NCBI RefSeq assembly: GCF_030705305.1 | Contig: NZ_JAUZEE010000001.1 | Coordinates: 620,001-684,000 of the forward strand | Length of the DNA: 64,000 bases | DNA from: Leptothrix discophora | GTDB taxonomy: Bacteria; Pseudomonadota; Gammaproteobacteria; Burkholderiales; Burkholderiaceae_C | Reading direction: 5' to 3' | Shown: positions 49,969 to 57,700 of the stretch, one piece after another | Numbering within the stretch: position 1 is the stretch's first letter | How the letters are laid out: each line of letters starts with the position of its first letter | The notes under the pieces: generated by a model | The model's input: the letters and a program-made list of their open reading frames with translations, nothing else | What the model was told of the DNA's origin: nothing | Database searches by the model: none | Program-made: the position numbers and the translations under genes

Positions 49969-51192
49969 TCAGGCGCCAGCCGCCACAGACGGCGGCAGGT
50001 CGCCGCCGAGGTCGCGCAGGCGCTTGCGCAGCTGGCTGCGTTCGGCCCGCAGGTCGACCTGCAGATGGGCAAGGTTCAGCATCAACGATTGCAGGGAACC
50101 CGCCCCGCCCGCGCTGGCCGCGCCGGCTGGCGTGGGCTCCAGCGGCATGGCCGAGCTGCCCGGCGCGAAATCGCCGAAGACCGAGTTGTTGACCGACCGC
50201 TCGTCCAGCCGCTGAGACAGGTCGGTGAAGGCCATGCCGACATGCTGGCCATGCTGACGCAGCCAGACCTCGATGCCGTCCAGACGGCGGCCCAGCGACT
50301 CGAAGGTGCGCTTGAGAGCCGCGTCGAGCAGCGGCGCGACATCGGCCGCCGCGCCCGCCATCGCGGGATGCTCCATCCGACGGTCCATGCGCACCAGCAT
50401 CGCGCCCAGTTCGGCGACGTCGTTGGCAGCCCGCGCGGCGATCTGTTCGAGCCGGCCGTCGATCTGGCCGACCCGTTCGGCCAGCTCACGCAGCACGCGG
50501 TCATCGGCCTTCGTCGCCACCGGCGAGAACGGATCGAAGTCGACCAGGCCGCTGTGCGGACCGGTCAGCCCACCCGACTGCGTCATGCGCGACTCCAGCT
50601 CGTCGAAGCGCTGCTCGATGTGGCGGTCGATGCGCTGGAACTGCGCCTCCAGTGCCGGACCGGCGCCAGCGCCGGCGCCCTCGCCCAGGCGGCTGCTGCT
50701 GGCCTGCAGTTGGTGGCTGACCAGGACGGCCAGGCCTTCGAGCCGGTCGGTCAGCGTGTCGTCGATGCGCTTGAGCGAGGCCTCCAGGCTGGCGAAGCGC
50801 ATCTCCTGCAGGCCCTGCCGGTGCTGCTGGGCGGTGTCGAGCGAGACCATGTCGTTCATGACCACCTCGCGGCTGTGCATCAACTGCGCGCTCAGCTCGC
50901 GGCAGCGCGCGGCCAGATGCACCTCCTGTTCGGACAGCATGCGACCCAGACGGGCCTCCTGCTCGGCGATGCGGTCCTGCCGCGACAGCAGGTGCAGCAG
51001 CGCCACCGCGATGGCGAGCGACCACGCCACCACCGCGCCGGCCAGCAGCAGCCGGATGTCGGCGCTGGCGCCGGCCAGCCGCGCGGCCTCGGGCGCCTGC
51101 CAGAGCGTCACCACGCGCTCGGCCGCCAGCGCCACCAGCGCCGTGCCGATCAGCAAACCGCCGGCGATCGCACCCAATCGCATCGTTCTCAT
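49969..51192 (-). CDS. Coiled-coil membrane protein, unknown
   Basis: A 407-residue protein that I do not recognise. Two membrane helices (about 5-25 and 47-67, LLLAGAVVAWSLAIAVALLHLL) are followed by a long coiled-coil-rich cytoplasmic or periplasmic region: EQEARLGRMLSEQEVHLAARCRELSAQL, SLEASLKRIDDTLTDRLEGLAVLVSHQLQ, DRVLRELAERVGQIDGRLEQIAAR. Linkers are Gly/Ala/Pro-rich. It ends with SLMLNLAHLQVDLRAERSQLRKRLRDLGG. No catalytic motif is seen. It is divergent from the ligase-like gene and may be a scaffold. Confidence 0.75.
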   Translation of the reverse strand: MRTMRLGAIAGGLLIGTALVALAAERVVTLWQAPEAARLAGASADIRLLLAGAVVAWSLAIAVALLHLLSRQDRIAEQEARLGRMLSEQEVHLAARCRELSAQLMHSREVVMNDMVSLDTAQQHRQGLQEMRFASLEASLKRIDDTLTDRLEGLAVLVSHQLQASSSRLGEGAGAGAGPALEAQFQRIDRHIEQRFDELESRMTQSGGLTGPHSGLVDFDPFSPVATKADDRVLRELAERVGQIDGRLEQIAARAANDVAELGAMLVRMDRRMEHPAMAGAAADVAPLLDAALKRTFESLGRRLDGIEVWLRQHGQHVGMAFTDLSQRLDERSVNNSVFGDFAPGSSAMPLEPTPAGAASAGGAGSLQSLMLNLAHLQVDLRAERSQLRKRLRDLGGDLPPSVAAGA

Positions 51193-51312
51193 CGTCCTGT
51201 CCTCGTCGTTCTGCAGCTTCGTGGCGTCGCGTCTGCCGGAGCCTGCTGGCGACCCGGAGCGCGAAAAATGTCTCGAAGCACTCTAGAACATTCGGTGACA
51301 GGTGTGCCGCAT

Positions 51313-51368
51313 CACCCCCCGAACCGGGGGTGCGTGTCCTGCCCCACATCGGGTGCCGGCACCCGATG
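51313..51368. promoter_or_regulatory. Two palindromes in divergent promoter region
   Basis: CACCCCC (51313-51319) and GGGGGTG (51326-51332) flank 6 bases. A perfect 22-base palindrome with arms CATCGGGTGCC and GGCACCCGATG follows at 51347-51368. Both lie in the 261-base gap between the divergent coiled-coil protein and the degenerate ligase, 86-141 bases upstream of the latter. They are operator-like; no U tract suggests termination. Confidence 0.45.
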
Positions 51369-51453
51369 GCGCGGCTGCGATGCCACACGTCTGGCCGTCG
51401 GCGGCATCCATCCCCCTCGAATGGGTCAGATCAGCGGCCGCTAAGCTGCCGGC

Positions 51454-53157
51454 ATGCACCGCTACGCCCGACTGATCGCCGCGCTCGATGCCGGCCTGGC
51501 ACCCGACCCTGCGCGCACGCTGATCGCCGACCACCTGGCCGGACTCCCGCCCCGCGACGCCGCCTGGACGGTGCGCCTGCTGGGTGGCAAGGCGCTGCTG
51601 CACCCGGCCCTGCCGGTGCCCGTCCTGCGTGCGGCGGCCTTGCTGGCGAGCGGCCTGCCGCCCTGGCTGTTCGACCTCAGCCTGGACCGCGTCGGCGATC
51701 TGGCCGAGACCATCGCGCTGGTGCTGGACGAGGGGCCGGTGCGCGACCGCGCCTGCGCGCCGCCTGGCCTGGCCGACTGGATCGCGCACGCGCCGCAAGC
51801 CTGGTCGACCCTGCAGGGCGACGCGCAGGTCGAGCGCCTGGCCCGGGACTGGCAGGCGCTCGACGCGGACGTCCGGCCGGTCGCCATCGGCCTTTGCGCA
51901 GGCAGCCGCCGGCTGCGCCAGCCGGCGGCGCTGTTGCAGGGCGCCGTGGCCGACCTGGCCGGCCTGCCGCCGGGCGTGATCGCGCAACGCTGGGACACCT
52001 GGACGCGCCAGGCCGATCGGCCCTGGCCCGAAGCCTGGCAGGCGCTGGTCGATCCGATGGCCACCGACGCGTCCCCCACGCCGCCGCCCTTGCGGCCGTG
52101 GCAGCGGCTCGACCTGGGTGCGGCACCGATCGACACGCTCGCCCGGCTCGGTCCGGTGGACCGCTGGCGGGTGCGCCATCACCTGGGCGGGCTGCGTGTG
52201 CAGTTGGTCAGGCACCGCGGTCGGGCCCGCGTCTGGGGCGACGATCTGGCTTTGCTCGACGCCGCCTTCCCCGACCTGGTCACGGCGGCTTGCGCCTGGC
52301 CTGTGGACTGCGCGATCGAGGCCGAACTGCTGCCGGGCGATCCGGCTGCTGGCCTGCAGCCCCGCCTGGGCCGCGCCAAGGTCGGGCCGGCGCTGCTGCG
52401 GCGCACGCCGGTGCGGGTGCGCCTGCACGACCTGCTGTCGATCGACGGCCAGGACCTGCGCGGGCTTGCGCGAGGCCAACGGCTTCAACGGCTGCAGGTG
52501 CTGTTGAAAAGCGGTCTCCCGAGCCCACCCACGCTGTCCTGGCAGACCGCGGAAAACCTGCCAGCGCACGACTGGGACGAGGTCCTGCGCTGGCACCGCG
52601 GCTGTCGCGAACCGGGTGCGGCAGGGCTGCTGCTGTCGGGCCGTGACGACCCGCTCGACGAGACCTGGCTGCTGCCCGCCGAGCCCTTGACGGCGCGCGC
52701 ACTGCTGCTCTATGCCCAGGCCGGCACCGGTCGGCATGCCGGGCGGTACGTCGACTGCACGCTGGCGGTCTGGAACCGCGCGCCGGTCGACGCCGACGAG
52801 GCTCGCGCGGTCATCGAGGCCATCGCCCGTCAGGAGCCGCCAGCGGCCGACGACGCGGGCTTGCGGCTGGTCACGCTGACCCGCACGATGGTCGGCCCGG
52901 ACGACGCGACGCGCACACAGGTCGATCGGCACGTGCGCGCCGCCACCTTCATGCGTTACGGCCCGGTGCGCAGCGTGCGCCCGGACCTGCTGGTCGAGCT
53001 GGCCTTCGACACCATCGAGGCCAGCAGCCGCCACCGCAGCGGCGTGACGCTGCGTGCACCGCGCATGGTCCGGCTGCTGCCCGACCATGCGCCACACGAG
53101 GCCGCCGACCTGTGCGGCCTGCTGGCGGCACAGGCATCCGGGTCGGCGCAGCCCTGA
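51454..53157 (+). CDS. Degenerate ATP-dependent DNA ligase homologue
   Basis: A 567-residue protein matching, from end to end, the PP_1105-type bacterial ATP-dependent DNA ligase family. N-terminal domain: AAWTVRLLGGK and GLPPWLFDLSLDRVGDLAETIALVL. Adenylation domain: LGGLRVQLVRHRGRARVW, FPDLVTAA. OB-fold: LLLYAQAGTGRHAGRYVDCTLAVWN, RYGPVRSVRPDLLVELAFDTIEASSRHRSGV, APRMVRL. The catalytic residues are not conserved: motif I ExKxDG reads RHHLGG (Lys to His243, Asp to Gly245), DGE reads EAE (289-291), motif IV EGLMLK reads AGLLLS (390-395) and motif V KWK is missing. So it is probably not a ligase, but a full-length open frame argues it has a function. Nothing related to its usual partners (helicase, exonuclease, metallophosphoesterase) lies nearby. 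Confidence 0.8.
   Translation: MHRYARLIAALDAGLAPDPARTLIADHLAGLPPRDAAWTVRLLGGKALLHPALPVPVLRAAALLASGLPPWLFDLSLDRVGDLAETIALVLDEGPVRDRACAPPGLADWIAHAPQAWSTLQGDAQVERLARDWQALDADVRPVAIGLCAGSRRLRQPAALLQGAVADLAGLPPGVIAQRWDTWTRQADRPWPEAWQALVDPMATDASPTPPPLRPWQRLDLGAAPIDTLARLGPVDRWRVRHHLGGLRVQLVRHRGRARVWGDDLALLDAAFPDLVTAACAWPVDCAIEAELLPGDPAAGLQPRLGRAKVGPALLRRTPVRVRLHDLLSIDGQDLRGLARGQRLQRLQVLLKSGLPSPPTLSWQTAENLPAHDWDEVLRWHRGCREPGAAGLLLSGRDDPLDETWLLPAEPLTARALLLYAQAGTGRHAGRYVDCTLAVWNRAPVDADEARAVIEAIARQEPPAADDAGLRLVTLTRTMVGPDDATRTQVDRHVRAATFMRYGPVRSVRPDLLVELAFDTIEASSRHRSGVTLRAPRMVRLLPDHAPHEAADLCGLLAAQASGSAQP

Positions 53158-53259: not shown

Positions 53260-53267
<8 letters not shown>
53232..53267. repeat. 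12-bp tandem repeat over MFS stop
   Basis: Three copies of GAGATCAGCGAC (one with GT in place of GA) cover the MFS stop codon at 53260-53262. In the MFS frame each unit contains an in-frame TGA, so the stop signal is tripled. Confidence 0.75.
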
Positions 53268-54984
<1,717 letters not shown>

Positions 54985-56447: not shown

Positions 56448-57203
56448 ATGTCCAACACCTCCTTCCTGCCCGATCTGGACCGAAGCTCCGACGCCGAGGC
56501 CGACGCGAACGTCGCCGCCGGTGGCCTGCCGGTCTCGCAGCGCATCCGCGCGCGCATCAAGGCGGCCCAGCGGCGCTTCCATGCCAACGACAACATCGCC
56601 GACTTCATCCACGAGGGTGAACTCGACGCCCTCGTCGACGAGGTCCAGGCCAAGATGGCCTGCGTGCTCTCCAGCCTGGTGATCGACACCGAGAGCGATC
56701 ACAACACCCAGGACACCGCCCGACGGGTGGCCAAGATGTACGTGCGCGAGGTCTTCAAGGGCCGTTACGTGGCAGCCCCTGCGACCACCGAGTTCCCCAA
56801 CGTCGAGCACCTCAACGAGCTGATGATCGTCGGCCCGATCACCGTGCGCAGCGCCTGCTCGCACCACCTCTGCCCGATCGTCGGCCAGCTGTGGATCGGC
56901 GTCATGCCCAACGAGCACTCCAACCTGATCGGCCTGTCGAAGTACGCCCGCCTGGCCGACTGGATCATGAGCCGGCCGCAGATCCAGGAAGAGGCCGTCA
57001 CCCAGGTCGCCGACCTGCTGCAGTCCAAGATGCAGCCCGACGGCCTGGCCGTCGTGATGGAAGCCGACCATTTCTGCATGGGCTGGCGCGGCGTCAAGGA
57101 CATGGACTCCAAGATGATCAACAGTGTCATGCGCGGCTCCTTCCTGAAGGACGCCAACCTGCGGCGCGAGTTCCTGTCGCTGCTGCACCGCAAGAAGTCC
57201 TGA
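56448..57203 (+). CDS. folE: GTP cyclohydrolase I
   Basis: A 251-residue enzyme that converts GTP to dihydroneopterin triphosphate, first step of folate and tetrahydrobiopterin synthesis. Zinc ligands Cys137, His140 (SACSHHLCP) and Cys210 (DHFCMGWRG) are present, with DTESDHNTQDTARRVAKMY and EHSNLIGLSKYARL. The N-terminal 40 residues are a variable extension. The ATG at 56448 is used. A BLUF photoreceptor gene follows after 71 bases. Confidence 0.95.
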   Translation: MSNTSFLPDLDRSSDAEADANVAAGGLPVSQRIRARIKAAQRRFHANDNIADFIHEGELDALVDEVQAKMACVLSSLVIDTESDHNTQDTARRVAKMYVREVFKGRYVAAPATTEFPNVEHLNELMIVGPITVRSACSHHLCPIVGQLWIGVMPNEHSNLIGLSKYARLADWIMSRPQIQEEAVTQVADLLQSKMQPDGLAVVMEADHFCMGWRGVKDMDSKMINSVMRGSFLKDANLRREFLSLLHRKKS

Positions 57204-57226
57204 ACCCTCCAGCTGTTCTGCCCCGT

Positions 57227-57250
57227 CCCCTTCCCCTTCCCCTTCCCCTC
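57227..57250. repeat. CCCCTT hexanucleotide repeat
   Basis: Three copies of CCCCTT and a partial fourth (CCCCTC) lie in the 71-base gap between folE and the BLUF gene, giving a polypyrimidine tract on the plus strand just upstream of the BLUF start. Confidence 0.7.
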
Positions 57251-57274
57251 ACCGAACACGACCGAAAGCCCGAC

Positions 57275-57700
57275 ATGCTCGTCCGACTGCTCTACGCCAG
57301 CCGCGCCGATTCGGTCACCTCCGACCTGATCGATGCCATCCTGGCCCGATCGCGGGTGACCAACCCGGCCCTGGGCATCACCGGCATCCTGTGCCACGGC
57401 GGCGACGTCTTCATGCAGGTGCTCGAAGGCGGCCGCGAGCCGGTCAACCAGCTCTACAACCGCATCGCGGGTGATCCGCGTCACAAGGACGTGACGCTGC
57501 TGCACTACGCCGAGATCGCCGAGCGGCGCTTCTCCGGCTGGACCATGGGCCAGGTCAACCTCGCGCGCATCAACCCGTCGATCGTGCTGAAGTACAGCGA
57601 GCGCCCGGTGCTGGACCCCTTCTGCGTGCCCGGCCCGGTGTCGATGGCGATGCTCGAAGAGCTGATCGCGACCGCCTCCATCGTCGGCCGCGCCTGCTGA
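57275..57700 (+). CDS. BLUF blue-light sensor protein
   Basis: A 141-residue short BLUF protein that should bind FAD and sense blue light. All residues known from PixD/AppA are present: Tyr7 (LLYASRAD), Asn30 (SRVTNPALGITGIL), Gln48 (DVFMQVLEGG), Trp89 and Met91 (FSGWTMGQV); spacing matches PixD. About 45 residues of C-terminal helices (SIVLKYSERPVLDP, SMAMLEELIATASIV) follow, as in PixD. No output domain is fused, so the output partner must be a separate protein. It lies downstream of folE and upstream of a MarR gene. Confidence 0.92.
   Translation: MLVRLLYASRADSVTSDLIDAILARSRVTNPALGITGILCHGGDVFMQVLEGGREPVNQLYNRIAGDPRHKDVTLLHYAEIAERRFSGWTMGQVNLARINPSIVLKYSERPVLDPFCVPGPVSMAMLEELIATASIVGRAC

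What the first reader, a model, noticed from the sequence alone, without database searches (positions are those of the whole stretch)
51454..53157. Full-length DNA ligase homologue without catalytic residues
The protein keeps the whole architecture of the PP_1105-type ATP-dependent DNA ligase family, including the conserved N-terminal domain and OB-fold, yet the nucleotidyl lysine of motif I is His243, the following Asp is Gly245, motif III DGE is EAE, motif IV Lys is Ser395 and the motif V KWK is gone. The frame is intact over 567 residues and the codon use is like the neighbours, so it is unlikely to be a dying pseudogene. It may be a non-catalytic DNA-binding or end-recognition protein. In this family the genes usually sit with a helicase, an exonuclease and a metallophosphoesterase; none is nearby.
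Basis: partly seen in the sequence, partly recalled or inferred. Interest (0 to 1): 0.78.

Follow-up and report, generated by a model that had tools for sequence, protein, structure and literature searches.

The report
DNA ligase lookalike kept without catalysis
A bacterial gene still encodes a full-size relative of a DNA-joining enzyme but has lost the residues needed for joining; evolution has nevertheless kept it, together with a DNA-cutting partner enzyme, so it probably does a non-enzymatic job in DNA repair.

Summary
In detail: 51454-53157 (+) encodes an intact 567-aa homologue of the PP_1105-type ("cisplatin damage response") ATP-dependent DNA ligase, with the nucleotidyl lysine replaced by His243 and motifs III, IV and V lost. 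It does not behave as a dying gene. Of 107 genomes of the family whose motif I was read, 103 keep the lysine and 4 do not (own, G004, G002, G233); a fifth dead copy (G302) came from a wider search. Two dead pairs show purifying selection (omega 0.28 and 0.135; 50 neutral simulations 0.60-1.05; live pair 0.11). Two dead copies contain no lysine at all. The usual partners are not missing: exonuclease, Lhr helicase and metallophosphoesterase lie elsewhere in the own genome. In 250 genomes ligase and exonuclease are both present in 104, both absent in 144, discordant in 2; all five dead-ligase genomes keep an exonuclease. G302 has the dead ligase near a second exonuclease plus a complete live operon. 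Best explanation: a pseudo-ligase, a non-catalytic DNA clamp working with the exonuclease, comparable to the structural role of ligase IV. DNA binding and exonuclease binding are inferred, not shown. New variant of a known kind.

The parts
51454..53157 (+). Catalytically dead ligase homologue, 567 aa
   Evidence: open frame; NCBIfam PRK09247 and TIGR04120 matches under cut-off; only match in the own genome
51454..52068 (+). N-terminal DNA-binding domain, residues 1-205 (border chosen by me from the alignment)
   Evidence: alignment; helices predicted here with pLDDT mostly 60-83, the only trusted part of a poor model
52069..52689 (+). Nucleotidyltransferase domain without catalytic residues, residues 206-412 (border approximate)
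   Evidence: alignment; fastest evolving part, omega 0.45 own-G004
52174..52197 (+). Former motif I, residues 241-248 (RHHLGGLR); His243 in place of the nucleotidyl lysine, Gly245 in place of Asp
52318..52326 (+). Former motif III, residues 289-291, EAE in place of DGE
52636..52638 (+). Former motif IV lysine, Ser395
52669..52677 (+). Former motif V KWK, residues 406-408 LLP
52690..53154 (+). OB-fold domain, residues 413-567 (border approximate)
   Evidence: alignment; slowest dN of the three domains in both dead pairs
49969..51183 (-). Divergent upstream gene, 404 aa, no family match; not shown to belong, bounds the ligase as a lone gene
53260..54984 (-). Convergent downstream MFS metabolite/H+ symporter-like gene; bounds the ligase as a lone gene
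56448..57700 (+). FolE-like gene (name recalled) and BLUF gene, shared position marker with the dead-ligase locus of G002 and G004

Best explanation
A catalytically dead but functionally retained ligase (pseudo-ligase). Shown: full-length homology, loss of the adenylation residues, an intact frame, purifying selection, and retention together with the ligase-associated exonuclease gene. Inferred: it still grips nicked or broken DNA with its DNA-binding and OB domains and positions, recruits or restrains that exonuclease (a metallo-beta-lactamase-fold nuclease related to CPSF73), while another ligase of the cell seals. The dead nucleotidyltransferase domain would be a structural link between the two DNA-gripping domains. 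That it is a selected non-catalytic protein I hold at about 0.9; the exonuclease-partner mechanism at about 0.5, which is the confidence given here.
For: Motif losses against 98 live relatives; 4 dead of 107 genomes read plus G302. Codon likelihood: omega 0.28 own-G004 (2dlnL 73 against omega 1) and 0.135 G233-G302 (2dlnL 177), live pair 0.110, neutral simulations 0.60-1.05; G233 and G302 share altered motif residues, so there selection acted after the loss. Dead catalytic domain least constrained, DNA-binding and OB domains more. Ligase and exonuclease co-occur: 104 both, 144 neither, 2 discordant of 250, and all five dead-ligase genomes have an exonuclease over cut-off. Those exonucleases keep the HxHxDH motif and are under purifying selection, omega 0.073 and 0.080. 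In G302 an exonuclease lies 2.9 kb upstream of the dead ligase on the same strand while a live operon lies elsewhere. Precedents: lysine mutant of a small ligase still binds DNA with lower affinity (PMC6144786, passages); ligase IV binds Artemis (PMC4037875, passages; PMC9956705, abstract); inactive ligase IV promotes repair (PMC9638927, abstract).
Against: No binding data and no trusted structure (mean pLDDT 43). The exonuclease is on another contig in four of the five dead-ligase genomes. The protein evolves fast: 46% identity to G004 where 18 neighbour gene pairs have 67-96%. The cruder NG86 count gives dN/dS 0.77 for own-G004, neighbours 0.07-0.37. The catalytic domain alone, omega 0.45, has no neutral control of its own, and the DNA-binding-domain value 0.11 for own-G004 rests on a saturated dS of 4.5. 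The own DNA-binding domain is net acidic (-4; G004 -3; live examples -3 to +6) and nearly all conserved lysines are lost. Coupling is not absolute: in G003 an IS110-type transposase gene splits the exonuclease while the ligase keeps its lysine. Genome counts are not corrected for relatedness.
Confidence: 0.5

Rival explanations
1. A DNA-binding or regulatory protein recruited to another task, for instance with the PAS kinase, receiver and GGDEF-EAL proteins encoded next to it in three genomes, and independent of the exonuclease.
For: In G002, G233 and G302 the dead ligase lies 33-110 bp upstream of a PAS histidine kinase, a receiver and a GGDEF-EAL gene, across two genera.
Against: Own and G004 have no match to the receiver at 1e-20 and no such genes beside the ligase. 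The module occurs without a ligase beside it in G150 and G361, and receiver matches occur in five other genus genomes, so module and ligase are separable.
Confidence: 0.2
2. An accessory subunit that helps another ligase of the cell, as inactive ligase IV stimulates ligase III, with the exonuclease only a bystander.
For: PMC9638927 (abstract) reports such stimulation. A weak ligase-model hit in a 485-aa frame of the own genome could be another ATP ligase (not followed up).
Against: Does not explain the near-perfect co-occurrence with the exonuclease. No other ligase was examined here.
Confidence: 0.15
3. A gene in decay whose frame happens to be open.
For: Fast divergence, 46% identity to G004; NG86 dN/dS 0.77; at 90% GC, 24% of simulated neutral copies had no stop.
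Against: Omega 0.28 and 0.135 against 0.60-1.05 in 50 neutral simulations. At 68-80% GC the simulated neutral copies carry 3.5-6.3 stops on average and 0-2.5% have none; the window is 71% GC. Five intact frames in two genera.
Confidence: 0.07
4. An unconventional nucleotidyltransferase that uses another nucleophile, such as His243.
For: A histidine stands at the lysine position in this one protein.
Against: The position is His, Asp, Thr and Arg in own, G004, G002 and G233; motifs III, IV and V are altered too; G004 and G302 have no lysine at all.
Confidence: 0.03

Closest known systems
PP_1105-type ligase of the exo-lig-Lhr-MPE gene cluster (NCBIfam TIGR04120, PRK09247)
   Same: Full-length sequence homology and domain order; exonuclease, helicase and phosphoesterase of the cluster present in the genome.
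   Different: No catalytic residues, scores under the cut-offs, gene unlinked from the cluster. Live example: Ideonella dechloratans plasmid, exo-lig-Lhr-pdeM in a row, EWKYDG present.
Ligase IV in its structural role, with Artemis
   Same: Proposed: a ligase whose non-catalytic DNA and nuclease binding matters (PMC9638927, PMC10858965, PMC9956705 abstracts; PMC4037875 passages). That Artemis is a metallo-beta-lactamase nuclease like the exonuclease here is partly recalled.
   Different: Ligase IV is a live enzyme made inactive by experiment; no XRCC4-like partner or BRCT domain was sought or seen here.
Inactive ligase domain of the poxvirus processivity factor A20
   Same: A naturally inactive ligase unit, catalytic subdomain plus OB fold, kept for a structural job (PMC11142717, passages).
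   Different: Other lineage; a middle domain of a polymerase cofactor, not a free-standing full-length ligase homologue.

Membership tests
PP_1105-type ATP-dependent DNA ligase | Homology over DNA-binding, nucleotidyltransferase and OB domains | tested here: met
   PRK09247 stretches and alignment with 98 live members
PP_1105-type ATP-dependent DNA ligase | Curated family score | tested here: not met
   269 of 400 and 293 of 543 bits; the other four dead copies 108-308 of 400; live G009 592 and Ideonella 596
PP_1105-type ATP-dependent DNA ligase | Motif I lysine that is adenylated | tested here: not met
   His243; 103 of 107 family genomes keep Lys
PP_1105-type ATP-dependent DNA ligase | Motifs III, IV and V | tested here: not met
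   EAE, Ser395, LLP
PP_1105-type ATP-dependent DNA ligase | Gene beside exonuclease, Lhr and MPE | tested here: not met
   different contigs; in 93 of 103 live family loci the exonuclease lies in the fetched flank
PP_1105-type ATP-dependent DNA ligase | Exonuclease, Lhr and MPE encoded in the same genome | tested here: met
   429, 1059 and 217 bits, all over cut-off
PP_1105-type ATP-dependent DNA ligase | DNA joining activity | not testable with these tools
   needs purified protein
Pseudoenzyme under selection | Purifying selection after loss of catalysis | tested here: met
   omega 0.135 for G233-G302, which share altered motif residues; omega 0.28 for own-G004; neutral control 0.60-1.05
Structural ligase clamp (ligase IV-like role) | Binding of DNA ends and of the nuclease | not testable with these tools
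   no binding data; model of 3 sequences too poor

The most novel reading that the evidence does not exclude
A natural, long-lived pseudo-ligase lineage with its own exonuclease forms a separate, non-sealing branch of the exo-lig-Lhr-MPE repair system, able to coexist with the live operon (G302): a bacterial counterpart of the structural ligase IV-Artemis partnership, in which holding and trimming DNA ends has been separated from sealing them.
Probability: 0.35. Interest if true: 0.78.

Novelty: new variant of a known kind. Interest (0 to 1): 0.64.

Why it matters
Whether DNA ligases have an important non-catalytic role has been studied with engineered dead ligase IV. Here evolution has done the experiment: full-length ligase homologues that lost the catalytic residues, stayed under purifying selection and stayed in genomes with the cluster's exonuclease. 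That makes a non-catalytic ligase role directly testable in bacteria. It also warns that the name 'ATP-dependent DNA ligase', which family models would suggest, would be wrong for this lineage.

Tried and rejected
Rejected: frameshift or assembly artefact (open frames in five genomes); a relocated lysine; neutral decay; an obligate tie to the sensor-kinase module. Long antisense frames over the gene also overlie live ligases and were set aside as a GC effect.

Led nowhere: viral contigs gave no relative; the genome-contig scan gave two Synechococcus loci, both live; the structure model from 3 sequences has mean pLDDT 43, and although Foldseek ranks seven DNA ligases first, TM-scores are 0.11-0.15; 78 plasmid records match the own protein, the two that I opened are live operons and the other 76 were not opened; the G302 protein has no plasmid match. 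The species could not be named.

Open: whether the dead ligases are one clade. FastTree joins four of them with support 1.0; the mixture-model tree joins five at 81/97 with a long-branch warning; four AU tests against grouping dead copies with live copies of their own genus give p 0.0395, 0.0027, 0.0231 and 0.0487. Against it, only one residue (K528R) is a shared derived state in four dead copies, and the exonuclease tree does not unite the five; there neither one clade of five (p 0.44), nor one clade of the own genus (p 0.33), nor one clade of G233/G302 with their genus (p 0.11) is rejected. A basic or polar residue at exonuclease position 27 in all five (K, R, R, Q, K; Pro in 81 of 86 others) was noted, not used.

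Papers: passages only of PMC8301817, PMC6144786, PMC4037875 and PMC11142717; abstract and outline of PMC9638927, PMC10858965 and PMC9956705; all others in search listings only. The biochemistry of the P. putida cluster is recalled or known from a reference list; PMC6231139 is not held. No natural full-length dead ligase of this family appeared in the listings, a library without most subscription journals.

Full report
What is there. Window 51454-53157 (+) is one open frame of 567 codons. It is a relative of the PP_1105-type ATP-dependent DNA ligases: NCBIfam PRK09247 293 bits and TIGR04120 269 bits, under their cut-offs of 543 and 400; phmmer also finds DNA ligases in the PDB, best E 3e-10. 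It is the only match to itself in the 4.65 Mb genome at E 0.001. K243, D245, D289, G290, E291, K395, K406 and K408 are invariant in 98 aligned live relatives and read H, G, E, A, E, S, L, P here.

How unusual it is. In the genus 5 of 13 genomes have a match; in a sample of 250 family genomes 105 do. Adding G003 and G004, motif I was read in 107 genomes: 103 keep Glu-Trp-Lys-x-Asp-Gly; own, G004, G002 and G233 do not. A search of 399 family genomes with the G233 protein matched 172 and gave a fifth dead ligase, G302, 63-67% identical to G233; motif I of the other new matches was not read. At the lysine position stand His, Asp, Thr, Arg and Arg in own, G004, G002, G233 and G302. The five proteins hold 3, 0, 2, 1 and 0 lysines; the 98 live ones 9 to 36. 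Low lysine is partly a matter of GC: some window genes are as poor.

Not a decaying gene. G004 is syntenic with own: 18 neighbour gene pairs are 67-96% identical, the ligases 46%. Pairwise codon likelihood gives omega 0.28 for own-G004 (2dlnL 73 against omega 1), 0.135 for G233-G302 (2dlnL 177) and 0.110 for the live pair G009-G003; 14 non-ligase pairs lie at 0.038-0.110. Fifty neutral simulations gave 0.60-1.05, mean about 0.8, so the estimator reads low but not this low. The cruder NG86 count gives 0.77 for own-G004 and 0.07-0.37 for the neighbours; YN00 gives 0.36. G233 and G302 share altered motif residues, so there the selection acted after the loss; for own-G004 that order is inferred. 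Neutral drift to the own-G004 divergence leaves 5.3 stops per copy at 72% GC and 1.5 at 90% GC, where 24% of copies have none. By domain, omega for own-G004 and G233-G302 is 0.11 and 0.10 (DNA-binding), 0.45 and 0.20 (catalytic), 0.23 and 0.10 (OB); the first own-G004 value rests on a saturated dS of 4.5, and dN is lowest in the OB domain in both pairs. Of 248 columns conserved in live ligases, own, G004, G002 and G233 keep 129, 118, 149 and 100; hydrophobic, Gly and Pro columns are kept more often (50-68%) than polar ones (24-47%), lysines almost never. That looks like a kept fold with a discarded active site.

The partners. Exonuclease, Lhr helicase and metallophosphoesterase are in the own genome over their cut-offs: G000:C25:73192-74193 (429 bits), C22:397623-400109 (1059) and C22:396877-397488 (217), the last two side by side. 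G004 has all three as well. G002 has the exonuclease but neither of the others over cut-off; G233 has the exonuclease, no helicase over cut-off, and was not tested for the phosphoesterase. The eight genus genomes without a ligase match have none of the three over cut-off. In 250 family genomes, ligase and exonuclease are both present in 104 and both absent in 144. The two discordant ones are G172, whose exonuclease is in pieces just under cut-off on two contigs, and G115, 76% complete; G181, counted as absent for both, has exonuclease fragments. The count is not corrected for relatedness. Outside that sample, G003 has a live ligase beside an exonuclease gene split by an IS110-type transposase gene. 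The three dead-ligase genomes in the sample have the three lowest exonuclease scores of the 105 over cut-off (429, 407, 401; next 446), yet the exonucleases are under strong purifying selection (omega 0.073 and 0.080) and keep HxHxDH. By sequence the exonuclease resembles CPSF73-type metallo-beta-lactamase nucleases.

Where it sits. In 93 of 103 live family loci the exonuclease lies in the fetched flank of about 1.5 kb; a named example is the Ideonella dechloratans plasmid with exo-lig-Lhr-pdeM. In own, G004, G002 and G233 the exonuclease and the dead ligase are on different contigs. Own, G004 and G002 share FolE-like (name recalled) and BLUF genes downstream. G002, G233 and G302 share a PAS kinase, a receiver and a GGDEF-EAL gene 33-110 bp downstream. 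This chain suggests one ancestral locus, though trees do not settle it. G150 and G361, of the same genus as G233, have the kinase module without a ligase beside it, in G150 with the kinase directly next to the hydrolase gene; both have a live ligase with exonuclease elsewhere. G302 has both: the dead ligase with an exonuclease 2.9 kb upstream, and a complete live operon on another contig. Its assembly is fragmented, so coexistence needs checking.

How it most likely works. Shown: a non-catalytic, selected protein; all five dead-ligase genomes also have an exonuclease over cut-off. Inferred: it grips nicked or broken DNA through its DNA-binding and OB domains and positions or restrains the exonuclease, while another ligase seals. 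Each element has a precedent: a lysine mutant of a small ligase still binds DNA, more weakly (PMC6144786, passages); [quoted passage not shown] PMC9956705 abstract); inactive ligase IV supports repair and stimulates ligase III (PMC9638927 abstract). Against it: no binding data, a net acidic DNA-binding domain in own, loss of most conserved lysines, and no linkage to the exonuclease in four of five genomes.

Compared with what is known. By descent it belongs to the PP_1105-type ligases; it fails that family's catalytic features and score, so it should not be filed as a ligase. A natural inactive ligase domain is known in poxvirus A20 (PMC11142717, passages), and dead ligase IV is known from experiment. 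A natural full-length dead bacterial ligase kept with the cluster's nuclease did not appear in nine searches of the held library. Hence: new variant of a known kind.

Noticed in passing
L088:6648-9294 (G003): In a genome of the same genus with a live-lysine ligase, the neighbouring exonuclease gene is split by an IS110/IS116-family transposase gene.
   Followed up: partly
G000:C11:183191-183724: Weak TIGR04120 hit (20 bits) in a 485-aa frame of the own genome; hits of 20-34 bits occur in most genus genomes. Perhaps another, smaller ATP ligase that could do the sealing.
   Followed up: no
L204:4661-9668, L176:5273-10261, L086:3369-8511: A PAS histidine kinase, single-domain receiver and receiver-PAS-GGDEF-EAL gene set beside the dead ligase in three genomes, and present without a ligase beside it in G150 and G361.
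   Followed up: partly
L089:9181-10257 and the four other dead-ligase-associated exonucleases: Exonuclease residue 27 is K, R, R, Q, K in the five, but Pro in 81 of 86 other exonucleases with a residue there; with five related sequences this may be chance.
   Followed up: partly
window 51283-53097, minus strand: A 604-aa antisense frame overlies the ligase gene; similar long antisense frames overlie live ligases, so it is probably a GC effect.
   Followed up: partly
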